From Lepidurus packardi (Eukaryota > Arthropoda > Branchiopoda > Notostraca > Triopsidae), in the NCBI GenBank assembly GCA_023053545.1, contig JAKZAN010000004.1, positions 6,572,001-6,636,000 of the forward strand: a stretch of DNA of 64,000 bases. The letters are read 5' to 3'. The translations under genes and the position numbers were made by a program. The notes below the pieces were generated by a model. The model searched no databases. It was not told the DNA's origin and saw only the letters and a list, made by a program, of their open reading frames with translations. Every line of letters starts with the position of its first letter. The stretch's first letter is position 1. Shown in pieces: positions 35,572 to 63,300 of this stretch.

Positions 35572-35575
35572 CAAC
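35572..35575 (+). other. Left target-site duplication CAAC
   Basis: CAAC directly precedes the left terminal repeat and is repeated directly after the right one (48407-48410). A 4-bp duplication fits an integrase-type transposase. Confidence 0.75.
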
Positions 35576-35590
35576 TGTTGCGACCCAAGT
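35576..35590 (+). repeat. Left terminal inverted repeat
   Basis: TGTTGCGACCCAAGT, an exact inverted match to 48392-48406. Imperfect palindromes with CCCGAGTTCGAGCTCGGG and CCCAAGTTCGTACTTGGG follow within the next 60 bases. Confidence 0.8.
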
Positions 35591-36429
35591 TCGATATCTG
35601 CCCGAGTTCGAGCTCGGGCAGCCCAAGTTCGTACTTGGGTAGACACTGAACTTGGGACGCGAGGCATCTGCCCAAGTTCGATGCTTAAAAGTATGAACTT
35701 TATATTTGACGTGACACATTTTGCAGAGGCGTGGCATTTTCCAAAAGAAGGGTGTAGCTTTCGGTGTGACTTTATCTACTTGCAAACATGATCCGTTGGA
35801 GTCGCTCTTAATTGTATTTTCTCTCCAGTATAAAGCTTATTAAAATTGTTATTCTTTCTTATTCAACCCGTGAACAAAAATATAAACAAATGGTATCTCT
35901 TTTAACGGAAAAGATTTAGTGAACTTATGTGAAGTTACTTAACTTAGACAGACACAGATTCATTTTAAATGTATTTTGTATTTATATATTTCATAGAAAT
36001 CGAAGGATGCTTAAAACTTCTCATTCGACATCCAAACATAGACCTTCGTTGTGTCAAATCTCCTACTTTCTATTCAAGTTTGTACTTGTGAATGTAACCC
36101 TTTCTTAGTGATTACACCGTTGCGTTTCATGTATTGTTCATGCAGTTAAAATAGTGAATAAAGTGTTAATAAACTTTTTTGTTGTTGTTAAGAAAAGGAG
36201 ACCGCGTTGCTCGGTCTCTTTGTATTCGCGTATTAAATAAAATCGATACATATGATAGAATAATAAACTTGATGAAATTAATTAACTGGTTTCTTTTTGT
36301 TCTGAAAATGCGATGGAAAAAGTGCTCTCTCTACATAATACTGAACTTGAGCTACCCAGCATAAGTTCGAACTATTGGGTAAACATATAGCTCAAGAATT
36401 CCCCATAAGCGTCATGTTTTGAGAGAGTT

Positions 36430-37400
36430 TTTATAAGATTTAATAGCACACTTAACCTGTTGATGTAATAAATTAAGTGGTTTATCTTTGTGCTGTGAAC
36501 ATGCTATGAGAAGGGGCTTTTTCTACACAATACCGAACTCGGGTTCCCAAAAGTTAGAACTCTATCGGTAATAGCCCTATATTGTTCAAGAATTGAGACA
36601 ATATTGTAAAATTTGATTGAATAAAAATCTTGCTTATGATTTTGAAAAGTTTGAGAGACCTTTCGTAAAATTGTATAAAATAATAAGCTTGTTGATGTAA
36701 TAAATTAAGTGGTTTCTCTTTTTGTCGTGAACTAGCTGTGAATAGTCCTTTCTCTACGCAATACTGAACTTGGGCTCCCCAAGTTCGAACTCGGGTAACC
36801 CGAGTTCGAACTCGGGGAGCCCAAGTTCAAGAAATCCCCATAAGCGTCCTATTTTGAGAGAGTTTTTATAAGATTTAATAGCACACTTAACCTGTTGATG
36901 TAATAAATTAAGTGGTTTATCTTTTTGTCGTGAACTAGCTGTGAATAGTCCTTTCTCTACGCAATACTGAACTTGGGCTCCCCAAGTTCGAACTCGGGTA
37001 ACCCGAGTTCGAACTCGGGGAGCCCAAGTTCAAGAAATCCCCATAAGCGTCCTATTTTGAGAGAGTTTTTGTAAGATTTAATAGCACACTTAACCTGTTG
37101 ATGTAATAAACTAAGTGGTTTATCTTTTTGTCGTGAACTAGCTGTGAATAGTCCTTTCTCTACGCAATACTGAACTTGGGCTCCCCAAGTTCGAACTCGG
37201 GTAACCCGAGTTCGAACTCGGGGAGCCCAAGTTCAAGAAATCCCCATAAGCGTCCTATTTTGAGAGAGTTTTTATAAGATTTAATAGCACACTTAACCTG
37301 TTGATGTAATAAATTAAGTGGTTTATCTTTGTGCTGTGAACATGCTATGAGAAAGGGCTTTTTCTACACAATACCGAACTCAGGTTCCCAACTTTGAACT
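36430..37400 (+). repeat. 203-bp tandem units with TTCGAA palindromes, left array
   Basis: The landmark CTTAACCTGTTGATG recurs at about 36447, 36887, 37090 and 37293, with a variant at about 36690; the central copies are spaced exactly 203 bases. Each full unit carries a near-perfect 60-base palindrome centred on GGGTAACCC, with an AGTTCGAACT motif on each side. Such structures could form hairpins or serve as paired protein-binding sites. Confidence 0.9.
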
Positions 37401-37756
37401 CTATCGGTTGCCCTATGTTCAAGAATTGCCTGCAAATGTCTTTTTTTAATATAATGGTGCAATATATACCAAATGTGTGTATATTTTCAAAAGTTTGGTT
37501 CACTCGGGTATGTTCACTAAATGGAATGCCTATATTTATTAAAATTTCATTTGAACTTATGTAGCAGACAAAGCAAATAAATGCTTAGCATCGAAATTGA
37601 AAATATAATATTCGTATATGTGATGTAAAGGGAAGGGAAGTTAAGGGGATTCGTAAATGTGAAGAGTGCGCAGTGCATTTAAGGACAAGGATTTCCCCTA
37701 TTGGTCGGAATATAACAATATAAGTACAGTCTATATATTCAATATAAGTACTTGGG

Positions 37757-38263
37757 ATGACCGTATTCCACTTCTCATTTTACTGTGGTCTTACTAAGAG
37801 CGCGAAGCTTGTTTACCATGGAAGGTATATCCTCCCATCTCCTGTGAAGGCGTTTGCTACCAATTTCGTTTTTTCTTTTCTTACAGGAAAATGCAATTTA
37901 ATTGATAATTGTGAAGAGTGTCTTGGTGATGGCGACTGTGCCTTCATGGTTGGACCCAACGACGGGGACATCGTCTGTTTCAACGAAGATACGGGGCACC
38001 CGCTGGCACCCTACTATGCTCGTATTGAGCATTGCGGTAGTAATACATTTTCTTTTAATAGAATATGCTAAATTCGATTCTTTAGATGAAAGTACCTACA
38101 TTCGAGTGGCTACAAGCCTCGTCGTTCTTGCAGTTTGTGTAATTTGCGTACTTGGAGTTATGGTTTACTGGTACGCTCTGAAATGCTTTAATTACAAAAC
38201 TTTATCCTAATGATTTGTCGTTATAGTAAACGACGGCGTAATCGACGGAATGAAATAGTATAG
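37757..38263 (+). CDS. Small PSI-like Cys-rich single-pass membrane protein (left copy)
   Basis: Exons 37757(or later)-38036, 38086-38170 and 38227-38263, with agreeing phases. The core has a CNLIDNCEECLGDGDCAFM pattern typical of small PSI or PTTG1IP-like cysteine modules, then CFNEDTGHPLAPYY and EHC. A transmembrane helix (VATSLVVLAVCVICVLGVMV) follows, and the last exon gives a strongly basic tail, CKRRRNRRNEIV. That layout (Cys module, membrane helix, Arg-rich cytoplasmic tail) resembles PTTG1IP, but the tail is much shorter. If the second intron is not removed, the protein ends in YWYALKCFNYKTLS instead. The start is uncertain: either ATG 37757, or ATG 37818 with a 7-base first exon. An identical copy lies in the right arm. 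Its function in the transposon is unknown. Confidence 0.55.
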
Positions 38264-39024
38264 GAAAATTACTCATGCTTTTGATCCTCTTCATGCTTTT
38301 GTGTTTCCGGTTTTTGTAATCCAGTTTACGATTTGTAGTTTAATCGGACATTGTATGCTTTTGATTTTTTCAATGGTTTTTATTGTGCTTTTATCATATT
38401 TTGTGATTTTTCTCAATTTTTATGTCTAAAAACTTTGAATACATAAGTTAACCTTGTTTTCATCTATCTTGTCTGTTCGGTGAAATGTTTTAACAATTTA
38501 CGCAGCTCCTTTTCCGAAATAAATTTTCCGTTTATTTACTCTTTTCGTTACCTCCTGACAACACAAATTTTACACGTTTTCCGAAGGTTTTGCCTTCGAA
38601 AGGCTTGGAAAGATACGGTCCGAAAGGGTTGGAAAGCAATGCTATATCGGTTCTTCCGTCCCCCAGCAACCATCGTCGCATCCCAGCACTCAACCATCGT
38701 CGTTCTGATTTGAGGTCACACAGTGCAAACATTGTCGGCTTTTCAAAATTTAGCTTTCGTCGCTGTTTCCACAAGTTCTTTTAAAATTGCGAGCGAAATG
38801 CGATTTCGCTCGCCAATTTTGAAGACCGATTTTTAGCTCTGGGCGCAAGTACAGCTCGTCTGACCTGCTGCATGTGTGCTTCGGTTGTGTTGTGTTGAGT
38901 GTTGCTCTTGCCTCTATATTAATGTGATAGTGAGATTAAACTTGTCTTTAAGTTGTTGTCCTTTCTTTTTTAGTTATCATGTTGCTTGCAGTTTGCTAAT
39001 TCTGCTCCTTACATTAAGTTTAAA

Positions 39025-42000
39025 ATGCAGGGTCTTGGTCCTGTGGATTGCGAGAAATTTGATTTAGTGGTACGACAAAAAGCCAGAGTTCGCAACTCGG
39101 TGATTATCACCAATGAGAAATATCAGAAGATTCTTGCCGAATTGCATAAACAAAAAGAAGGGGCGACGTTAAGTAATGAAATAAGTAGAAAATTTATTTT
39201 GCAAACTGACGAAAGCGGTGAGGAATACGTTGCGTGCTTTACTGAGCCGTCCCAAAGTATGGCAAAAGGGTACGCGCGTCAACCTTTCAAGCGCGTCGTC
39301 CGGGCTGAAGAAATGTACGATTACATCAAGAAGGTGCACGAAAATGACACGAATCATACGTCACCTAGGGCGGCGTTTCATTATGTAAGTTAATTAAGCA
39401 ATATATCAAGCTTACCATACTATAACATTGTTTTAGGTGCAAGCGTATTACTATGGAGTAACCCGTTTTTTAGTTGAAGAATATACCCAAATGTGCCCGT
39501 ACTGTGCAACCAAAAAAGTCCAAACAAATGCAACTCCCATGAGGCACGTGGTTGCCAGTGATGTCATGTCACAAGGACAGGTAAGTGGTCCTGAGAAGAT
39601 ACGGGGAAAAGCTTACAGATTTTATTTTTTCTTTGGTAGCTCGATCTGGTCCTTCTGCCGAAGAAGTCGGTTGTCGACGGGTATCGCTACATAGCCCAGT
39701 ATGTAGACTTGGCGTCCCGTTTCCATATTCTATGGCCAATGCGCAAAAAAAATGGGACGGAAACCTATGAAGGCTTACTGAGATACGTGTTCAGCGTGTT
39801 TGGACCCCCAAAAAGGCTCCAGACAGATAATGGAACTGAATTTCGGGATCAAGTAATACTGTTAACATGAACATGAACGGATACTAAAGGAAGATTAATA
39901 TTATTTCACAGGCGTTGGCAGCGGGCTTAAGTAATTGGCCCATACAACATATCTTTGGAAGGGTACGACATCCCCAAAGCCAAGGAGTAGTTGAGCGGGC
40001 CAACGCTGAGCTGAAGAAATTGCTTCGTAACCGCACGCTGACCGACAAGCAACAAAGAACCTGGCTCTACTGGCTGCCAGTAGTTCAGTGTAATATTCTT
40101 TTGATTAAACAATGAGGGATTTGGGTTTGTAATGGAATAATGTTGTATTTTATTTTCAGATCAAATGAATACGAGAAGATCACAACCCATTGGCCAACTA
40201 TCTTCATTCGCGGTCATGTTTGGGAAAGCTCCGGTACCTTATGGAAGACCGGAACTAAACCCAACACCAGCTGCTGATTATACCACTACGGAACTGCCAT
40301 TGGGTCCTGATTCAGAAGATAGCGAGGAAGACGGATCAGAACCTCTTCCTACTCTGTCAGCGGACTTCATTTTTCTAGATACCCTTGATGCTGTAAGTTT
40401 CTTCCAATGATGATGTTGTTCCTTCCAATGTTCCTGAGCTATCACTTGAAAAATTATCTGTTTCGACTCAGGAATTGGAACCTGAAGAGGACCCTTTTGC
40501 GCTAGCTTCCACGTCAACTGCCAATCCGGTCATCGAAGCCTACTGCGGTGGAGATGTGGTATGCCTGAAATCGCCGACTCAGGAGTTAATGGAACCTGAA
40601 GAGGACCCTTTTGCGCTAGCTTCCACGTCAACTGCCAATCCGGTCATCGAAGCCTACTGCGGTAGAAGTGGTGTGATCTGCACGGATGTTGAAGTCGCTG
40701 AAACGGACTCAGAGGTACTACCTGCGTGCACTTTTCCACCAAGAAAACAAAATTACTGCCATGGTTCATCATATTTAATTTTTTTATGTATTTTTATTTT
40801 AGCTTGACGGTGTTGCACCACTAAACGAGGATCGTCTGGCCATCTTCCGCTTTGTCCGCAGCCAAGCGGCAGCAGCATTATCCCATAGCCATGAAACTAT
40901 GAATCAAAAGGCTGGGTTAAATCCGTGCAAACGCACAACCAAGCTAGAAGTAGGGAACCACGTTACCGTGTTAATTCCCACCAAAGACCGGACAAGCTTG
41001 GAGAGCAGCCGCCTTCCAGGTATAGTCATCAGAGTGAGCGGTGATACATACCGAACCTACACCGTCCAGTCGTTCCACGGGGTACTTCGGGAGTCATATA
41101 CGGAAAATCACTTAGAGCTTTATGAACAGAAATTTAAGCAACTCTACCATTGTAAAAGTTACGAAGTTATACCGCTAAGGACGGCGGTTCGACTTTTTTA
41201 CGGCGGTAAAAGCAAAGTAGACATTTGCGAGTGTAAAAGTGATTGTGAAACTAAGCGGTGCAGGTGTAACCGAACGTTAAAAAATTGCACATCGGCTTGT
41301 CATGGTGGAAGGTACTGCCAAAACCAGGCGCTTTCTGAAACAAGTATGGCAGTTACACAATTATACTTTCAAGCTCTGAGGTTTAAAGTAAACGAAGTGA
41401 TCGGCTCCGCATATAACCTTGCTGGTAATTTCTTCACTTTGTTTTGGGGCGAAGAGGGTAAGGTTTTGTTTTTCTTTTAGGAGATGTGAACTCTGACGAT
41501 TCGAACGACTATTGCAAACCTGAATATCACGAACCGTACAGATCCATTCCGGTAGATGAAATGCAGGTGTTGTCGGAGCAAGGACTACAATATCGTTTGA
41601 AAGTCTCTGAAGACCATTTTTGGGATCAAGCTGGTAAGCACATAAATTATTTAAGAGAGATACAAGGCTTAAAGTCCCGACTTATTTATTTATGATCCAG
41701 ATGCGACTTCTTGTAGCTGCCGTAAGATGTGTTTGAAAAAATTTTGCAAGTGCATGCAGGCCTCACGGAGATGTACCGAACTTTGCCATGGCGAACAAGC
41801 TTGCAACAATGCCGAAGCACGAGAATTAAGTGAGTTGCAAATGAATATAACAATGTCAAACTTATTCTGCGGTACAGAACATCAAGCAAAAAAATCTTCG
41901 AATGGGTGTGACTGCATTGAAGGCTGCGATGTGGCAGAAGATTGTTCCTGTCGAGCATTCTGTGATATGGAATGCACTTGCAGCAAGAACTGTTCAAAAA

Positions 42001-43802
42001 GTAAATCAATTTTGTGAATATATCATTTAATCCCGTTCCATACAACAATATATAATTACATGTAGGGAAAGGCCTCCCAACCCAGAATAACCGAATCATG
42101 TGTGACTGCACGGAGTCATGTATAAACAGTAAGGAATGTGAATGCAAGAAGGCTGACATTCCGTGTTGGTCGGCTTTGTGCCATAACGGAAGGACTTGTG
42201 ATCTTATCGATGAGAACATGGGTAAGTTTATTACCATACTGCTGCAAAGAAAAACGCGAAGATGACTACTCTAATTATTCAAAACAGAAACACAAGCGGG
42301 ACCACTCGATGACCAGTCAGCGATTCAGTCCGCTGAACCACAATTCACTGATGCAGACATGGGTACGCATTTTGATTCTTCCTCCTAAATTGCTGATTGA
42401 TTTTTACTTTTCAATCATTTAAGCAGTCAACGAGGAGGCTATCCCTATGGAAGACGAACCACAGCCCTTAACTGAGGATGATTTATTTAAAAAATTCAAC
42501 TGCCAATGCAAAGATAATTATTGCGCACCAAAATTCTGTCCTTGTCGAACGACCGTTAATTTGCTGGATCCAACTGACCTCTCCCGTACAATAAAATCTC
42601 TTCGATGCAGCACGACATGTCATAGAGGACGATTATGTTCAAACCAAGTTGTACGAAAAGGTAATTTTATTGAAGAATTCAAACTTACCCGATTAAGATT
42701 TAATTACTTTTTGCTCGACAGTTACTAATAAGTTGGAGACGCTTTTTCATTCCACGAAACTCAAGCATTTACGCACGGTGCTACCGTCGTTATATGCTGC
42801 ATATGCATGGATTCAGGCAAACATGCATCACTTTGAGGAGCATGTTACCATCCCCTACGTAAGGTATTCAATGGCACAAATTCCTCACCCTAAAATTCCT
42901 TTTATAGTTGGAACAAAAATGGAAATTAAACAATAAAATGGAAAAGCGTATTAAGGAAACGGGGGCCTTGGATTACCCCACTGTAATCCTGGATCGTGAT
43001 TTGGATGATTACTGGTACCGCTATAGAATTATTGCTCACACCCCCGATGATTTAGAAATTCTGCGCGATGCAAAGATCTGTCTTCTTTGGGCTTCCAATG
43101 CTGTGACAATTGAAGCTTCGACTAACCGAAGTCCATACAAATTGCTCGAGTATCAGGTAGAAAACAAGACATCTCTGCTATAACCTAACCTAAACCATTA
43201 CTTTTCGGCAGCTAGCGATGGATTCCAAATCTAAGGCTGGGAAGCAGCAGTCGTCTCATGCTACTACTGTCCTAAATTGGGCCGTAACACAAAAGGAACA
43301 AGGCAATCGCACAACGGTACGTGCGACCAGTTTTAAACATCCTTCGGTTCCGGCGTCGAGAAAATTGCGAGCCGGACCACTAAAGTTTGAAAACATGCTG
43401 CCTACAGAAAAGACGCACTTAGTGTTATCGTGGCTTCTGAAGGAATCGAGTCTGGACAAAGGAATTAAAAAACTAGAAAAGGCCGACAATAGCGATCTAA
43501 AATTAGATTCCCGGGCTATCTCGGATGGAGTTCTTGACCAGCGGGTTAACAAAGAATTTAACCGAGTATATACGTACCTCACACCGCAAGCCAAGATTAC
43601 CGTAAAAAAGTTCATCGCAGAAAAGCGCGGGAAAAAGCTATTTTGCTGTCCTGCATGCAGTCTACCGGCGAAAAACAAAACTGTACAGTGTGACCGATGC
43701 TTGTCATGGTTTCATTACCTTTGTGCAACGAATTTTCACATGGCGGAGCACAAGGATAAAGACTGGTTTTGTGGAACTTGTGGAAACAGCGACGAAAGCT
43801 AA
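39025..43802 (+). CDS. Integrase-CXC-PHD transposase
   Basis: Fifteen exons: 39025-39384, 39437-39580, 39640-39852, 39912-40089, 40160-40392, 40472-40714, 40803-41343, 41481-41633, 41701-42000, 42066-42221, 42288-42362, 42427-42660, 42722-42858, 42908-43156 and 43212-43802. All junctions are GT-AG, the phases agree, there is no stop, and the length is about 1268 residues. Order: H2C2 finger (VHENDTNH ... CPYC); DD35E core with D in LDLVLLPKK, D in LQTDNGTEF and E in VVERANAEL, exactly 35 residues after the second D; a duplicated acidic segment; a VGNHVTVLIP C-terminal integrase-like domain; CXC clusters (CECKSDCETKRCRCN, CSCRKMCLKKFCKC, CDCIEGCDVAEDCSCR, CDCTESCINSKECECK, CQCKDNYCAPKFCPCR), several ending in a CH(N/R/G)GR-type C; a helical segment; and a C4HC3 PHD finger (CPAC, CDRC, HYLC, CGTC). 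Family: Ginger / KRBA2-SCAND3-like. It should cut and paste the element. Confidence 0.88.
40472..40680 (+). repeat. 114-bp tandem duplication inside transposase exon 6
   Basis: The segment beginning CCTGAAGAGGACCC recurs at 40481 and 40595, giving two in-frame copies of a 38-residue acidic stretch with EPEEDPFALASTSTANPVIE in each. The copies are nearly identical in DNA, so the duplication is recent. The segment sits between the integrase core and the C-terminal integrase-like domain and is probably a flexible linker. Confidence 0.9.
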
Positions 43803-44288
43803 ATTTTGAAAAGCCGACAATGTTTGCACTGTGTGACCTCAAATCAGAACGACGATGGTTGAGTGCTGGGATGCGACGATGGTTGCTGGGGGACGGAAGA
43901 ACCGATATAGCATTGCTTTCCAACCCTTTCGGACCGTATCTTTCCAAGCCTTTCGAAGGCAAAACCTTCGGAAAACGTGTAAAATTTGTGTTGTCAGGAG
44001 GTAACGAAAAGAGTAAATAAACGGAAAATTTATTTCGGAAAAGGAGCTGCGTAAATTGTTAAAACATTTCACCGAACAGACAAGATAGATGAAAACAAGG
44101 TTAACTTATGTATTCAAAGTTTTTAGACATAAAAATTGAGAAAAATCACAAAATATGATAAAAGCACAATAAAAACCATTGAAAAAATCAAAAGCATACA
44201 ATGTCCGATTAAACTACAAATCGTAAACTGGATTACAAAAACCGGAAACACAAAAGCATGAAGAGGATCAAAAGCATGAGTAATTTTC

Positions 44289-44795
44289 CTATACTATTTC
44301 ATTCCGTCGATTACGCCGTCGTTTACTATAACGACAAATCATTAGGATAAAGTTTTGTAATTAAAGCATTTCAGAGCGTACCAGTAAACCATAACTCCAA
44401 GTACGCAAATTACACAAACTGCAAGAACGACGAGGCTTGTAGCCACTCGAATGTAGGTACTTTCATCTAAAGAATCGAATTTAGCATATTCTATTAAAAG
44501 AAAATGTATTACTACCGCAATGCTCAATACGAGCATAGTAGGGTGCCAGCGGGTGCCCCGTATCTTCGTTGAAACAGACGATGTCCCCGTCGTTGGGTCC
44601 AACCATGAAGGCACAGTCGCCATCACCAAGACACTCTTCACAATTATCAATTAAATTGCATTTTCCTGTAAGAAAAGAAAAAACGAAATTGGTAGCAAAC
44701 GCCTTCACAGGAGATGGGAGGATATACCTTCCATGGTAAACAAGCTTCGCGCTCTTAGTAAGACCACAGTAAAATGAGAAGTGGAATACGGTCAT
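44289..44795 (-). CDS. Small PSI-like membrane protein (right, mirrored copy)
   Basis: Exact mirror of the left-arm gene, on the minus strand: exons 44516-44795 (or a later start), 44382-44466 and 44289-44325. The reading frame, splice sites, transmembrane helix and Arg-rich tail are all preserved, with no difference seen from the left copy. Both copies point inward, toward the transposase gene. Because both are intact and identical, either the duplication is very recent or gene conversion between the arms keeps them alike. Confidence 0.55.
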
Positions 44796-45239
44796 CCCAA
44801 GTACTTATATTGAATATATAGACTGTACTTATATTGTTATATTCCGACCAATAGGGGAAATCCTTGTCCTTAAATGCACTGCGCACTCTTCACATTTACG
44901 AATCCCCTTAACTTCCCTTCCCTTTACATCACATATACGAATATTATATTTTCAATTTCGATGCTAAGCATTTATTTGCTTTGTCTGCTACATAAGTTCA
45001 AATGAAATTTTAATAAATATAGGCATTCCATTTAGTGAACATACCCGAGTGAACCAAACTTTTGAAAATATACACACATTTGGTATATATTGCACCATTA
45101 TATTAAAAAAAGACATTTGCAGGCAATTCTTGAACATAGGGCAACCGATAGAGTTCAAAGTTGGGAACCTGAGTTCGGTATTGTGTAGAAAAAGCCCTTT
45201 CTCATAGCATGTTCACAGCACAAAGATAAACCACTTAAT

Positions 45240-46010
45240 TTATTACATCAACAGGTTAAGTGTGCTATTAAATCTTATAAAAACTCTCTCAAAATAGGAC
45301 GCTTATGGGGATTTCTTGAACTTGGGCTCCCCGAGTTCGAACTCGGGTTACCCGAGTTCGAACTTGGGGAGCCCAAGTTCAGTATTGCGTAGAGAAAGGA
45401 CTATTCACAGCTAGTTCACGACAAAAAGATAAACCACTTAGTTTATTACATCAACAGGTTAAGTGTGCTATTAAATCTTATAAAAACTCTCTCAAAATAG
45501 GACGCTTATGGGGATTTCTTGAACTTGGGCTCCCCGAGTTCGAACTCGGGTTACCCGAGTTCGAACTTGGGGAGCCCAAGTTCAGTATTGCGTAGAGAAA
45601 GGACTATTCACAGCTAGTTCACGACAAAAAGATAAACCACTTAATTTATTACATCAATAAGCTTATTATTTTATACAATTTTACGAAAGGTCTCTCAAAC
45701 TTTTTAAAATCATAAGCAAGATTTTTATTCAATCAAATTTTACAATATTGTCTCAATTCTTGAACAATATAGGGCTATTACCGATAGAGTTCTAACTTTT
45801 GGGAACCCGAGTTCGGTATTGTGTAGAAAAAGCCCCTTCTCATAGCATGTTCACAGCACAAAGATAAACCACTTAATTTATTACATCAACAGGTTAAGTA
45901 TGCTATTAAATCTTATAAAAACTCTCTCAAAATAGGACGCTTATGGGGATTTCTTGAACTTGGGCTCCCCGAGTTCGAACTCGGGTTACCCGAGTTCGAA
46001 CTTGGGGAAC
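45240..46010 (-). repeat. 203-bp tandem units with TTCGAA palindromes, right array
   Basis: Mirrored landmarks occur at about 45252, 45455 and 45885, with the variant unit at about 45650. The palindrome blocks near 45318-45380, 45522-45584 and 45955-46012 each contain two AGTTCGAACT motifs. One central unit is missing compared with the left array. Confidence 0.9.
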
Positions 46011-46043
46011 CTAAGTACGGTATTGTGTAGAAAAAGCCCTTTC

Positions 46044-47862
46044 TCTGCGCAAAACAACAGAACGCAAATCAAACATCTGACCTTCACAGACAGTCGCCAA
46101 CGTAGCATAGAGAAACTCGACACCGCAATGCTAAAATTCATCAAAGAAATGCAAACAAAACGAAACGACGAAAATAGACAAATCAAAATTGAACTGGACG
46201 CCATTAACAGTACCTTGAGACACCTAACATTGAGATACCTAAGAGACACTAATGAAGGCCATTTCATACGAAGATTCAACCCCCAACTTAATTCCGAGGA
46301 AAAAACGGGGAATCCTTAACGGTGGAGGTGAAGTCTTGCGCTGGCTTTTTGGCACCCTTAGCAGCAAAGATCTAGAAGACATTAACCGAAAATTCAGCAG
46401 GATAACAAAGGACAATAGAATGCTGTATCATTTAGAAGAACAACAGGCTACATTACTAAACGGCACGTACCTGCAGGTCCGGAAAAATGTGGACGCTATT
46501 TCAAAAATTACGAAAGCAGTGAGTAGCCTTGCCAGTAGTGTTGAAGACCTCGAAGCTGTGATTTCAGAATTTGGAGATTTTTATGCGTTTACGTGGAATT
46601 TTGCTCGAAAATTGGACAACGCTTATCATACCCTTGGTACCATTATACTTTGGTTACACCAAAACGTTAATAACATGAACACGGGCTTGTCAACAATAGC
46701 GTCAGGACGACTTTCACCAAACATAATTCCTCCAACAGAGCTATGGCAAATTCTTCAAGAAGTAAGCCGCTACCTATCCCGCAACTGGGTCGTAACAAAG
46801 GCGGCAGAACCAGGGAACATGTGGACCCATTATCAGGAATTCCGGGTGCGTTCAGCAGCAACACTCCAAGGCACACTGAAAATCTTCGTGGACATACCAC
46901 TACAAGATTTAAGTACTACACTTGATCTATATCAACTAATAGCTCTACCGACTTTTTTACCTGGAGGGAATTTCTCAGTTGACACAATACGATTATCTCG
47001 GCTTAACAAGCGACAGACAGTCGTATGTTGAATTTACTTCCTCAGAATTGGCAGAAACTTGTACAACAGGATCAGCGAAGATTTGCTCCACCAGTAAAGC
47101 CCTCAAGCGTGGCATCCATGGGCGCTCTTGCTTGTATGCTGCGTTCTTTAATGATACTGTCTTGATTGCGGAATTGTGCAAAAAGACAGTCCGAATAGAC
47201 GGCAGGCCATGGTGTCATTACCTTGGGAAAAACAAATGGATCTATTCAATACCTCAACCAATGCAACTTACAATATCTTGCCCAGAAGAACGACGTCCAG
47301 AAGCCTACAGCAAGAGTTCCAGTGTCCAGCTAAATGATGTGGGCATCTTAGAACTACCGGATGGCTGCTCAGCTCACTCCGGGTGGTGGACCTTTCCGGC
47401 AAACTTGGAAAAACTTAATAATTATACAATCCACACCAGCACTATAGACGTAAAAAATATCTTTTCCGATTTAGATTTTAACTTACCATATCCTGTTGTG
47501 CAACTCCCAAAACCAAATCATCAAGGATTAACGCAAATTACCAAAGACATTTTGGAAGACCTACAGAAAAAAGTACATTAGACCCAAATTGGGAAATCAG
47601 ATACAAGTTGTTCGAAAAAGCAGTTCAAGATTCAAAACCTATTTTTAATAATCTGAGTGACGAAATTTCGTATGTCTGTCTGACCCAAAGCTTCTTGACC
47701 CAATTTTTACTATACTGTTGGGCTGTTGTGATTACTGCCGCCACAGTATTTGCCCTCCCTGCCATCATCTATATGTTTTTGAGGCTTAGATGGCTGACAA
47801 GAAAACAAATTGAACTACTTCGTCTCTGGCAAGCTTACTTGATGTTGATGATAAATAAGTAG
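46044..47862 (+). pseudogene. Envelope fusion glycoprotein-like gene (baculovirus F / errantivirus Env type), frame-broken
   Basis: Relic of a class I-like membrane fusion protein gene, as found in insect errantiviruses and as host-captured F-like genes. Visible parts in order: a Lys/Arg-rich helical segment (46044-46270); a furin-type RKKR site followed by a Gly-rich hydrophobic stretch in fusion-peptide position (about 46290-46350); long heptad-rich helices; a Cys-containing ectodomain (46979-47581); and a transmembrane helix near the C-terminus (about 47690-47785) with a short basic tail. The gene is broken: the frame changes near 46270, near 46985-47030 and at an A-run near 47570. The N-terminal signal region is missing at the right-arm junction. 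No gag, pol or LTR lies beside it. It may be a captured passenger or a remnant of another element. Confidence 0.7.
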
Positions 47863-48329
47863 GGTATAGTGAATTATAAATTCCAACTTGTAATTCAATA
47901 TTATTATTATAATAACCATACCTGGATATCCAACTTCTGCATGCTATACGTTTGAGCTACTGTTATTATATGAGTGAACATTAGTTGCCAACAAACTTTT
48001 CAAGTACTGTACCCCAAAAACAATAATAAAAATAATGATACATATAAATTGAGGAGTGACAAGCACAACTCTACTCTTTAGTGATGAAAGTCGACACAAG
48101 TGGCGTAAACTGCAATTCTAAGTAGCCCCTCCTACATGCAACGCCTCCAAGTAAAGTAGTCTACACTCCACTGTAAACAAAACTTGTCATGTAAACTTCG
48201 AAGATAAATATTTAAATAAGTTGTGAAATTACTGCCAAGGTAATAATGCCAAATTAAAGATAACTAAAGCAGTAAACTGTATTGTTAATTTCACTTGCAA
48301 AAACTGTGTAGGTGTGGAGAACTTTAGTG
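47863..48329. other. AT-rich spacer between env-like relic and right end
   Basis: About 470 bases of AT-rich sequence with no reading frame of note. Any polyadenylation signal for the env-like relic would lie here. Confidence 0.6.
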
Positions 48330-48391
48330 TCAAATATTGCTACCCGAGTTCGAACTTGGGTTACCCGAGTTCGAACTCGGGTAGAGGCTCT
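48330..48391 (+). repeat. Right subterminal TTCGAA palindromes
   Basis: Two AGTTCGAACT-type motifs flank a central GGGTTACCC, matching the palindromes in the 203-bp units. They lie directly inside the right terminal repeat, and so tie the outer ends to the internal arrays. Confidence 0.85.
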
Positions 48392-48406
48392 ACTTGGGTC
48401 GCAACA
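48392..48406 (-). repeat. Right terminal inverted repeat
   Basis: ACTTGGGTCGCAACA, the exact inverse of the left terminus, followed by the CAAC duplication at 48407-48410. Confidence 0.8.
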
Positions 48407-48587
48407 CAACTAAGGAAGTGACTTTGTGTGAACTGAATTGTATTGGAACCTCAGAACGCGTTACAAGAAATTTAAAATGGAATCCAGAACACCGCGGCGA
48501 TCCACGCGTGGTTAGGATGAGACTTAATGGCCATACCTGCAAATATATGATTGAGTCTTATTGTTGTATAAAAAAAATATGGAAATG

Positions 48588-55009: not shown

Positions 55010-56297
55010 TTGGGTCACTCGAAAAGTCCGTGCAGTAATCCGAACACTTTCCCATTCAAACAGCCCGGGTATTTTTTTCCGTCTGCATTCGAACTTTTTT
55101 GTTCGAAAACTAGGAAGAGGTTTATGTTAGCTATATGTGTACCAAATTTTAGTGATCCTGACTTGAATTCGAAGTTTTTATTAACCACTGAAAGATGGAC
55201 GATTCCGCTGAACATTTTCGCCACATAATGCGGTATCATTTCCACGAAGGACTCAACGTTTCGGAAACACTTGAAAAAATTTGTGGAGTTTACGGCCCTG
55301 GTGCTTTAAAAGAACGCGTGGTTTGGAAATGGTTTGCGCGTTTCCGAAATGGAAATTTTTGCTTTCAAGATGGCGCCCGAACGGGTCGTCCTAAAGTGGT
55401 CGATACGAACCAAATAACATCTTTGGTGGACGTAAACCCACATTTTACAATAAAAGAGATACAGGAGATTGTCGGGGTATCCAATGATAGCGTTTCTAAA
55501 CACCTGAAATCCGCTGGCTACATTAATAGAGCGGACGTCTGGCTCCCGCACGACCTGAGCGACATGAACCTGGTAGAGAGCGTGGACGCCTGCGATTTAT
55601 TGCTACATAAAAATACGGAGCATCCTTTTTTGAGAAATGTAATCATGGGAGACGAAAATTGGATTATCTACAATAATGTTACAAGAAAAAGATCTTGGGG
55701 AACAAGGGACAGTCGTCTACAAACTGTCCCTAAAGCCAGGCTCCACCCGAAGAAGGTGATGCTGTGCATCTGGTGGGATTACAAAGGCGTAGTTTACTAG
55801 AAGCTACTACCATATGGTCAGACTATTAACTCGGACAAATACTGCGAGCAACTTAACAATTTGAAGGATGCCATTGCTCAAAAGCGTCCGGAATTGGCCA
55901 ACAGAAGAGGCGTAACCTTCCACCACGACAACGCCCGGCCACACACATCTTTGCGGACCCGGCAAAAACTTTTAAAATTTTCCTGGGATGTTCTACCGCA
56001 CCCTGCTTACAGCCCTGGCCTTGCACCTTCAGACTACCATCTTTTCCGCTCTCTTCAAAACTCCCTTAACGGAAAAAATTTCGAAAATCTGGAGGCCATC
56101 AAAATGCACCTCAATCAGTTTTTTCGCAAATAAACCCAAGATGTTTTGGGAGAAGGGGATCTTCGATCTACCAAATCGTTGGTCTAAAGTGATCGAACAA
56201 AATGGTTCATACATAGTTTAATAAAATTCGCTATGTGCAGAGAAATTCGCTTTCAAATTTTGGGTAATTTACTGCACGGACTTTTCGAGTGACCCAA
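55010..56297 (+). mobile_element. Full-length mariner transposon, inactive
   Basis: A 1288-bp element with inverted termini beginning TTGGGTCACTCGAAAAGTCC at both ends and a TA duplication (55008-55009 and 56298-56299), as expected for Tc1/mariner. It lies within exon 2 of the tetraspanin pseudogene. Its single gene is disabled. Confidence 0.95.
55195..56221 (+). pseudogene. Mariner transposase, nonsense and frameshift mutated
   Basis: The start ATG is followed by a helix-turn-helix N-terminal region and GRP linker (ARTGRPK). The three catalytic aspartates of the DD34D core remain: MGDENW, HHDNARPHTS and APSDYHLF. A TAG interrupts the frame at 55798, at the position after GVVY. A second lesion near 56115-56131, in a T-run, shifts the frame so that the last 30 residues (ending in IEQNGSY) lie in another frame. 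With two lesions the copy is not autonomous, though its termini could still be mobilised in trans. Confidence 0.93.
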
Positions 56298-60314: not shown

Positions 60315-63300
60315 ATGTATATAAAGACGGTCATCATCGACGGGTTCAAGTCGTACGGACAGAGAACAGAGATTAAAGGGTTTGATCCCTTGTTTAACGC
60401 CATAACTGGATTGAATGGTACCGGTAAATCTAATATCCTGGACTCCATTTGTTTCTTGCTGGGAATCACGAATCTGACCCATGTAAAACAATATTTATTG
60501 CTCTTTTACTCACAGTATAATATGCTCATCATGGTTTTTGTATTAGGTACGAGCCACTAACATGCAAGAGTTGATCTATAAGAATGGGCAAGCTGGCGTT
60601 ACTAAAGCCACAGTCACCATCGTATTTGACAACGCAGATAAAAGCCAAAGCCCTTTGGGTTACGAACAAAGTGACGAGATCACCATCACACGACAAGTAA
60701 AAACGAAAATTCATAAAGCTCCTCGCGTGCTTATGCAAATTGTGTTCCTCGTTTAGATCGTTTTGGGAGGGAAAAACAAATACTTAATCAATGGAAGTAA
60801 CGTGCCAAACAGCCGCATCCAGGATTTATTCCAGTCTGTGCAGCTAAACGTCAACAATCCCCACTTTCTCATTATGCAAGGCAGAGTTACCAAAGTTCTA
60901 AATATGAAACCACCTGAGGTACTGACGGCATTATTTGAATAATTTACCGAGTTAACAGTTTGCTCTCTAGATTCTCTCCATGATAGAAGAAGCTGCAGGT
61001 ACGCGTATGTACGAAACGAAGAAACAAAGTGCCGTGAAAACCATTGAGAAAAAGGATGCCAAACTTAGAGAAATCAATGCTGTAATTTTTCATTATAACT
61101 ATAAAGATACAAGTTTGATTTTACCGAGGATAACTTAGATAATTGACGAGGAAATTAGCCCAGCATTGGATAAACTGAAAGGAGAAAGAGCGCAGTATTT
61201 TCAGTTCCAGAAGACACAAAGGGATTTGGAGCTGTTGACCAAATTGCATGCGGCATACACATATACCGTTCTTGAAGTAAGCACCCTCTTAAGCACTTGT
61301 TAGTCTAATTTACCGTGTTTAAACATAGGCTGCTTGTGAGGAAGTTAAGAACCGTTACTTGGAAATCTGCGAATCCGTAGAAACTCTGCAAACCAACATG
61401 GCTAATGCCCAGAAGGAAATCAAGCCTCTCGAGCAAGAGATTGAAGTGATGTCACGTAAAAGACAGGAGGTAATTGAGTTTTTCTGTGTTTATCAAGGAA
61501 ATATCTTTTTAACGTGGAAATCTACTTCTTTTCTAGGAGTCCGGGCCTTTATTGCAAAAACTTGAGCTTGTTGTAAGCGAGAAACACAAAGCAGAAGCCA
61601 AAGTCCTCGCTAACGTGAAGAATATTACTGACAGTATGAAGAGAGAAGAAAAGCGCATTCAGCAACTGATAAAAAGCATTGCAGACGTAAGTTATTGTTT
61701 TCAAAACATTAGTATCTTCAAGAAGGTTCAATGTCTGTCGTTTAGGACCAAGCCACACTGGACGGTAGAGAAAAAGTGCACGAAGGTTTGGCCGAAGGTT
61801 TTCGAAAACTAAAAGAAGCTGAGGAGAAAGGAAAAGAAGTTTTGGCCTCCGCCCAAAAGAGATTGCAAGCCATTTCTTCAGGCATGTTTGCCTCCGATGA
61901 CGGACAATTCGCTACCATAGCTGAACAACTCATGGGTAAACTATTGCTTAAAATTTCATTTGACAGAAAAAGCTCTTATGTATGCTGTAGCTGTCAAGGA
62001 AAGCATTTCCAAGGCCGAAACGGAGCGCACAAAGAGCGAAATGAAGCTAAAAAATGATGAAAGCGAGTATCAAAAGAAATCCCAAGATGTGAAGAAGATC
62101 CAGGACTTGTTGGTTAAAGATCAACAGAATTATAAGAACATGGAAAGCCAAATTGGAAAGATCAAAGTAAATTTCATAATATGTGATAACATTAACAAGA
62201 ATCTTTTCTCAAATGAAATGTTCTATTCACATAGAAAGATATGGAGAAGTGCAATTATGATGAAGCTCATTTCCAGCGTGTCGAAGACGAGCACAAGAAT
62301 CTCAGAGAGGAAATAACCCAAGTGCGTCACACAGCTGCAGCTTTAGAAGACAGGTACCTCTCAAATTAGCTATTAATTTCATATTTGAGGTGTCTTTCTA
62401 GGATCCCTCAACTTCGGTTTAACTACACTGATCCCGAGCCAAATTTTGATTACAGTTCTGTTAAAGGTTTGCTGTGCAAATTGTTCACTGTGAAAGAAAA
62501 AGCAGCAACTCTAGCTCTGGAAGTTACGGCAGGAGGAAAAGTAAAATTTCTCCGTATATTTCATGACGGCGCTGAAATGTATGTGTTTTCAGCTATGCAA
62601 TGTGGTTGTGGATACGGAACGCACTGGCAAAAAGCTGCTGGAGAAGGGACAATTGGAAAGGCGAGTAACGTTTATTCCGTTGAATAAAATCCAGCCTCGG
62701 TACGTTGATCAACGAGCTGTTAAGATAGCCGAGAGTTTGGTTGGCAAGGAAAACGTTCAGCTTGCCATGGATTTAGTTGAATATAACGACGAAGTGAAAA
62801 AAGCTGTGGCGTTCGCCTTTGGAAGCACTTTTATCTGCAAAGATATGAACGTTGCGAGAACTGTGGCCTTCCACAAGAGCATTATGACCAAATGCGTTAC
62901 CCTGGAAGGTGATGTCGTAGACCCTGGTGGTGTAATTACGGGAGGTACGTGGTCGATTACGTTCGAGACGATTTCTAGTGCTTTTATGAATGGATTGCTT
63001 AGGTTTTCGAGCTGGTGGCTCTTCTTTGCTAGCGAAACTACCCGAGCTAATGGCCAAACAAGACCAACTAAATGAAATGGATCAGAGATTAAAAACGCTC
63101 GAAAATGAGCTGCGCAATGTTCAGCCTACAGCGCAAAAGTATGCTAGCCTACCAGTTTAACTTTCAGTTTAATTGCCTAACTGTATTTTTTTTTTTACTC
63201 AGGTACCTTGCATTGAAGAAACAGTACGAGTTAAAAGCTTACGAGTTTGATTTGATGAAGCAGTGTACTCAAGAGACGAGTCACCAGCGTCAAGCCCAAG

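What the first reader, a model, noticed from the sequence alone, without database searches (positions are those of the whole stretch)
35576..48406. Large DNA transposon combining an integrase-CXC-PHD protein, mirrored membrane-protein genes and an envelope relic
The sequence shows 15-bp inverted termini, a CAAC duplication, a complete integrase-type transposase, 1.9-kb near-identical inverted arms each with the same small membrane-protein gene, and an F-like envelope gene relic between the right arm and right terminus. Ginger-type elements are known to be cut-and-paste and to carry extra C-terminal domains, but I know of none with this full set. The combination recalls virus-like transposons (Mavericks, Teratorn) without their replication genes.
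Basis: partly seen in the sequence, partly recalled or inferred. Interest (0 to 1): 0.88.

Follow-up and report, generated by a model that had tools for sequence, protein, structure and literature searches.

The report
Flipping jumping gene with envelope remnant
A 12.8-kb cut-and-paste transposon, recently active in an arthropod-like genome, carries a mirrored pair of small genes that lets its middle flip over, plus the remains of a virus-type envelope gene: an unusual new variant of a known transposon group.

Summary
Window 35576-48406 has TGTTG...CAACA ends and a 4-bp target duplication; flanks match in 16 of 17 copies checked, and a sibling differs at 3 of 12,831 bases once its middle is turned. 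The transposase is one intact 15-exon gene (1,295 aa): DD35E integrase, at least three cysteine (CXC) modules, PHD finger. Its relatives are KRAB-A domain-containing protein 2-like (Ginger2-type) proteins; half of the relatives held show one CXC module. The 1.9-kb arms flank the transposase in 11 of 11 long copies; the middle lies one way in 2 and the other way in 9, and the arms evolve together, so it flips. The Baculo_F-type envelope gene is broken here, yet envelope sequence accompanies 10 of 11 long copies and the short transposase-less ones, and a scrap lies beside an older relative's transposase, so the link is probably old. A sister element carries PAN-domain genes instead. Target preference fits neither Ginger1 nor Ginger2. 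Verdict: a new cargo-carrying, flipping variant near Ginger2. That the envelope ever served transfer between hosts is not shown.

The parts
35572..35575 (.). left copy of the 4-bp target site duplication CAAC
35576..35642 (+). left terminal inverted repeat (15 bp perfect, 67 bp at 82%), TGTTG end, with CCCRAGTTCG motifs
36389..37430 (.). left tandem array (units about 203 bp apart) with palindromic AGTTCGAACT cores
36895..38778 (+). left inverted arm, 1,884 bp with one mismatch to the right arm (a poorer match extends to 36853)
37887..38210 (+). small cysteine-rich protein gene with one hydrophobic span, left copy: exons 37887-38036 and 38086-38210, 49-bp intron; start exon uncertain
38779..43773 (+). 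invertible central segment
39025..43802 (+). transposase gene, 15 exons, 1,295 aa: integrase core (DD35E counted by eye), CXC modules, PHD finger; its last 26 coding bases and stop lie in the right arm
43774..45657 (-). right inverted arm
44342..44665 (-). small cysteine-rich protein gene, right copy
   Evidence: coordinates mirrored from the left copy
45120..46060 (.). right tandem array, inverted relative to the left
46074..47862 (+). Baculo_F-type envelope gene remnant, in at least three frames here; 5' part missing
48340..48406 (-). right terminal inverted repeat ending CAACA
48407..48410 (.). right copy of the target site duplication CAAC

Best explanation
A single, recently active cut-and-paste DNA transposon of a deep Ginger2-like lineage. 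Shown: the unit, its ends and 4-bp duplications, an unbroken transposase gene, recurrence of the set, flipped isomers (in the assembly), concerted arms, and an envelope remnant common to the family. Inferred: the integrase-like transposase binds the repeated CCCRAGTTCG sites at the ends (perhaps through its CXC modules), cuts at the TG/CA ends and joins them with a 4-bp stagger. The left arm arose as an inverted duplicate of the right flank, since it repeats the tail of the transposase gene. Homologous recombination between the arms turns over the middle and keeps the arms alike. Deletions across the array-bearing flanks leave short copies that the transposase still moves. Envelope and small membrane protein are captured cargo; the envelope is decayed.
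For: 21 left ends at 99-100% over 125 bp and 19 right ends at 97-100% over 157 bp, both lower bounds. Equal 4-bp flanks in 16 of 17 copies with both flanks seen. Joined flanks of 12 copies: one is found whole (180 bp, 99%) at 10 other places, and a second over 118-137 bp across the junction at 12 places, i.e. paralogous empty sites; for the other 10, the window copy included, only their own flanks or nothing was listed, with 40 of 131 candidates scored. Sibling C3:8525756 differs at 3 of 12,831 bases after turning 38779-43773. Orientation 2 versus 9 in 11 long copies. Arms differ at 0-2 of about 1,350 within each of 6 copies but at 10-13 plus 2 gap columns between subfamilies. Transposase without frame change or early stop in 4 of 6 long copies, except that in two of the four the stop comes two codons sooner. 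In the central segment 12 coding against 13 noncoding changes between subfamilies, p 0.001; 6 of the 12 silent against 22% expected, p 0.028. CCCRAGTTCG 34 times in the window, all inside the element, 0.12 expected. Relatives.
Against: No transposition assay. Target preference matches neither Ginger1 nor Ginger2. The query lies outside the KRBA2-like clade on a long branch. By eye the CXC modules lack the tyrosines that LIN54 needs for TTYRAA, so CXC binding to the motif is a guess (PMC4974476 passages). One of 17 copies has unequal flanks (AAGG/AGGT). The flips rest on the assembly; a misjoin inside identical arms could mimic one. The 9:2 ratio is not significant (p 0.065) and copies are not independent.
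Confidence: 0.86

Rival explanations
1. Two nested elements: an envelope-bearing short transposon into which a separate transposase unit with long inverted ends (the arms) inserted.
For: Short copies hold both ends, array and envelope but no arm gene or transposase; the arms look like long terminal repeats.
Against: The arms end inside the arrays and include the tail of the transposase gene. All 11 long copies lie next to the element's own ends or envelope. An older partial copy jumps from array to mid-transposase, as a deletion would. One short copy has the envelope haplotype of two long copies.
Confidence: 0.06
2. A virus-like element (Maverick or Teratorn type) that lost its replication and capsid genes, the envelope being original.
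For: Envelope-type gene; internal inverted repeats and inverted middle as in Teratorn; sesarmid nimaviruses carry a Ginger2-like transposase (PMC10871703 passages).
Against: No polymerase, capsid or packaging domain among the 24 element frames scanned against Pfam; the sister element carries PAN-domain genes, i.e. exchangeable cargo.
Confidence: 0.07
3. Same transposon, but the envelope stretch is a passive passenger: a retroelement fragment caught by chance and spread by transposition alone. This does not exclude the best explanation.
For: None of 11 copies compared has an unbroken gene; the genome holds many open Baculo_F genes elsewhere.
Against: By score the nearest envelope outside the family is only 33% identical over 246 residues, with short stretches to 44%. 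A 91% identical scrap lies beside an older relative's transposase of 42-58% aa identity, so the capture looks old. Four of 21 element envelope matches keep one frame of 478-541 codons, though with stops in the wider match. None of this shows a role.
Confidence: 0.45

Closest known systems
Ginger2/TDD DNA transposons (Bao et al. 2010, PMC2836005; section 6 and passages read)
   Same: TGTNR termini, 4-bp duplications in metazoan members, integrase-like DDE transposase with zinc finger. The nearest named proteins are KRAB-A domain-containing protein 2-like, many with one C-terminal CXC module.
   Different: 12.8 kb against about 2.75-6.7 kb for the listed longer families; 1,295 aa in 15 exons, three CXC modules by the same pattern, PHD; targets not RTATAY; arms, cargo, envelope remnant.
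Ginger1 DNA transposons (same paper)
   Same: TGTNR ends, 4-bp duplications, introns; one listed family has a PHD finger.
   Different: No OTU or Ulp1 match here; 0 of 16 duplications are CCGG, CCGT or ACGG.
Teratorn (PMC6431247 and PMC10175614, passages read)
   Same: Internal long inverted repeats and two subtypes that differ by an inverted middle; transposon carrying virus-type genes.
   Different: piggyBac-type transposase, herpesvirus genome, 41-182 kb.
Sesarmid endogenous nimaviruses (PMC10871703, passages read)
   Same: Ginger2-like transposase and inverted terminal repeats in a crustacean element with other genes.
   Different: Large virus genomes inserting in (AT/TA)n.
Galileo (PMC3688188, abstract and outline seen)
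   Same: Many proposed transposase-binding sites in tandem repeats inside a transposon.
   Different: P-element superfamily; binding was tested there, not here.

Membership tests
Ginger2/TDD | TGTNR termini | tested here: met
   TGTTG
Ginger2/TDD | 4-bp target duplication (metazoan members) | tested here: met
   16 of 17 copies
Ginger2/TDD | RTATAY target preference | tested here: not met
   1 of 16 duplications lies in RTATAY, read by eye
Ginger2/TDD | H2C2 zinc finger and DDE core | tested here: met
   rve E 1.7e-12; H2C2-like residues and DD35E spacing by eye, the H2C2 Pfam model was not listed for the query
Ginger2/TDD | no GPY/F or YPYY motif | tested here: inconclusive
   not scored with a model; the region after the core aligns with a KRBA2-like protein
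Ginger2/TDD | transposase inside the Ginger2 clade | tested here: inconclusive
   outside the KRBA2-like clade of 61 rows, long branch; no named Ginger2 reference sequence was available
Ginger1 | CCGG/CCGT target | tested here: not met
   0 of 16
Ginger1 | OTU or Ulp1 domain | tested here: not met
   none at E <= 0.1
Maverick/Polinton | DNA polymerase B and capsid genes | tested here: not met
   none in 24 element frames scanned against Pfam; no dedicated search
LIN54/tesmin CXC | DNA-reading tyrosine in each CXC | tested here: not met
   other residues at that place by eye (compared); PDB sequence search with the CXC stretch found nothing

The most novel reading that the evidence does not exclude
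A cut-and-paste transposon lineage that once used a captured membrane-fusion envelope, and perhaps small surface proteins, to pass between cells or hosts: a DNA transposon turned infectious without capsid or polymerase, its flipping middle and swappable surface-protein cargo (small membrane protein here, PAN-domain genes in the sister) being parts of that lifestyle.
Probability: 0.1. Interest if true: 0.93.

Novelty: new variant of a known kind. Interest (0 to 1): 0.62.

Why it matters
An integrase-type DNA transposon that has taken up a viral-type envelope and other surface-protein genes shows a step thought to turn mobile elements into viruses. It also carries its own flipping, self-homogenising repeat pair. 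Many nearly identical copies, with flipped, short and cargo-swapped forms, make it a workable natural case. A side result: a C-terminal CXC module is frequent in KRBA2-like (Ginger2-type) transposases, while the word CXC does not occur in the main text of the paper that defined Ginger2.

Tried and rejected
Spliced-leader RNA to name the host: nothing, and no control rang. PDB search with the CXC stretch: none. Viral contigs with a KRBA2-like protein: 5 stretches matched a pattern, none a relative. Small arm protein: no candidate in the protein set; in the genome, beyond element copies, only two weak hits (E 0.046 and 0.17) near C1:4.44 Mb, not followed. An older partial copy at C2:1.32 Mb considered as a one-arm ancestor: rejected, it jumps from 36757 to 41192, i.e. 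a deletion. Selection on the arm gene: 0 of 275 changes in exons against 12 of 1,074 elsewhere, p 0.14, not significant. A tree with an OTU-bearing protein joined it to the query by two long branches; rebuilt without it. PHD in relatives: my pattern found none in 130 but also misses the query's own PHD; Pfam lists PHD in 0 of the 65 CXC-bearing relatives, but misses it in the whole query too, so its absence there is only suggested. Literature; the listings (8-20 papers each, 4) show no title on a Ginger element with an envelope. The library holds open-licence papers only.
Full report
Host. The window lies in a 108.6-Mb, 344-contig genome. A mitochondrial COX1 remnant reads with the invertebrate code with one stop in 403 codons and looks arthropod to me; that it is a branchiopod such as Daphnia is a guess from memory. 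Three contigs carry COX1-family frames open under the standard code, which look bacterial.

Unit and ends. The element spans 35576-48406 with CAAC on both sides and 15 perfect inverted bases within a 67-bp repeat at 82%. A left-end query gave 21 places at 99-100% over 125 bp, a right-end query 19 places at 97-100% over all 157 bp; both lists are lower bounds. Of 17 copies for which I saw both flanks, 16 have equal 4-bp flanks: CAAC, GTAC, GGGT twice, GAAC twice, AAAT, TATG, TATA, GATC, ATAC, TCCT, GGTC, GTGT, GGCC, GCAC. The exception is C2:7191717-7204552, AAGG/AGGT. The GCAC pair is the outer ends of a fused 23-kb structure whose inner left end has no partner there. Left out because one end is missing or unpaired: left ends at C1:11787342, C5:12113855, C2:1324594, C2:8004200; right ends at C6:346338, C39:2182, C1:7275376, C2:5592176; also more diverged ends. 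One copy is only 213 bp long, with GAAC on both sides. I joined the flanks of 12 copies. One joint (TATA) was found whole at 10 other places and a second (GGGT, C5:6745926) across its junction at 12 places, so these two sit in repeats that show the empty site. For the other 10, the window copy included, no empty site was listed (40 of 131 candidates scored).

Two size classes. Eleven copies hold transposase and both arm genes. Envelope sequence lies in 10 of these 11; the eleventh, at C2:8007029, belongs to the fused structure and has no right end of its own. Other copies have both ends, array and envelope but no transposase or arm gene; the four fetched simple ones are 4.3 to 5.4 kb. Two of these four share an extra stretch of about 630 bp and sit at different sites, so the short form has itself moved.

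Flip. Relative to the ends, the transposase segment is in the window's orientation in 2 of 11 long copies (window, C3:7592035) and reversed in 9. The window copy and C3:8525756 have the same length and, once 38779-43773 is turned, differ at 3 positions. Within each of 6 copies the arms differ at 0 to 2 of about 1,350 positions; arms of the two subfamilies differ at 10-13 positions and 2 gap columns. The arms thus evolve in concert. The right arm begins 26 coding bases before the transposase stop, so the left arm most simply is an inverted copy of the right flank.

Transposase. One gene of 15 exons with 14 short GT-AG introns, 1,295 aa. Integrase core E 1.7e-12; the 60 PDB matches shown of 129 are retroviral integrases and Ty3, best E 3.7e-11. 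CXC (TCR) E 2.8e-4 on exon 9 and PHD E 5.8e-6 on exon 15; in the whole protein TCR falls to 0.0085 and PHD is not listed. Of 6 long copies, four (window, C3:8525756, C2:8430189, C3:2963373) have no frame change or early stop, except that in the last two the stop comes two codons sooner; C5:8288566 has lost one coding base; C3:7592035 has a stop inside and a longer coding repeat. Between the window and C2:8430189 the central segment has 12 coding and 13 noncoding changes; three more coding changes lie in the last 29 bases, in the arm. The test used 3,885 coding and 1,110 noncoding bases, whereas the stretch holds about 3,860 and 1,136; the difference is immaterial (p about 0.001). Six of the 12 are silent against 22% expected (p 0.028).

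Kin. A first protein search gave 11 hits, the best (P0001) matching collinearly from the zinc-finger region to a CXC module, 26% over 620 columns. A two-row profile gave 443 hits; of the 120 listed, 16 are named KRAB-A domain-containing protein 2(-like), from molluscs, insects, crustaceans and a sea spider. A CXC pattern occurs in 65 of the 130 proteins held, once each, and three times in the query. In their alignment seven cysteines of the module are invariant, partly because the rows were chosen by the pattern; Pfam's own CXC model is listed for only 1 of the 65. PHD: see Tried and rejected. The tree separates 61 KRBA2-like rows from 8 LTR-retroelement rows; the query lies between them on a long branch. 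That KRBA2-like equals Ginger2 is inferred: Bao et al. list a Ginger2 family from Littorina saxatilis, and KRBA2-like hits come from the same snail.

Binding sites. CCCRAGTTCG occurs 34 times in the window, all within the element, 4 at each end and 13 in each array, against 0.12 expected. The core TTCGAA fits the LIN54 consensus TTYRAA, but LIN54's tyrosines are not seen in the element's modules, and Phe, Ala or Arg in their place abolished LIN54 binding. The link is a testable guess. The arrays are not needed for movement, as the 213-bp copy lacks them.

Envelope. Two pieces match Baculo_F over its cut-off. In the window the gene lies in at least three frames and its 5' part is missing; two fetched short copies have further upstream sequence with a signal-like start. 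None of 11 copies compared is unbroken. Of 21 element envelope matches in the genome, four keep one frame of 478-541 codons over this part, with stops in the wider match. By score the nearest envelope outside the family is 33% identical over 246 residues. An older relative (L073, C2:0.83 Mb), with transposase pieces 42-58% identical, has a 112-bp envelope scrap at 91% between its right-end region and its transposase. I read this as old capture, with the caution that 91% exceeds its transposase identity, so later exchange is possible; the two Baculo_F pieces themselves gave no tblastn match there.

Cargo exchange. L072 (C3:2804842-2811814, 6,973 bp) has related ends (81% over 353 bp on the left, 86% over 530 bp on the right), AGCA on both sides by eye, no transposase, arm-protein or envelope match, and three PAN-domain frames (E 2e-5, over the cut-off; 3e-4 and 5.7e-4, just under). 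PAN relatives elsewhere in the genome reach 47% over about 106 residues.

Judgement. It works like a cut-and-paste integrase-type transposon and its middle flips like Teratorn's. As a member of Ginger2 it meets the tests of termini, duplication length and core domain and fails the target test; clade placement is open. I file it as a new variant near Ginger2. Infectious behaviour is not shown.

Noticed in passing
L072 (G000:C3:2804842-2811814): Related 6,973-bp element without transposase or envelope match that carries three PAN-domain frames.
   Followed up: partly
proteins P0001-P0130: A C-terminal CXC module is frequent in KRAB-A domain-containing protein 2-like transposases: pattern in 65 of 130 proteins held.
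   Followed up: partly
window 55195-55800: Open frame of 201 aa that looks like a mariner-type transposase (recalled resemblance).
   Followed up: no
window 62563-63075: Open frame that looks like part of an SMC protein (recalled resemblance).
   Followed up: no
genome, e.g. C2:1598266, C100:46395: 27 further Baculo_F envelope matches outside the element, many in open frames of 600-700 codons; one search lists more.
   Followed up: no
genome contigs C52, C214, C43: COX1-family frames open under the standard code, probably bacterial contigs in the assembly.
   Followed up: no
L048 and L050/L051: Two copies are interrupted by other DNA at nearly the same place, element position 47915-48004.
   Followed up: no
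G000:C2:7991759-8015212: Fused structure with two central segments, outer ends sharing GCAC; an inner left end with AATA whose partner may be on contig C39.
   Followed up: partly
G000:C1:4438481 and C1:4443481: Two weak matches to the small arm protein, 5 kb apart, possibly a host relative.
   Followed up: no
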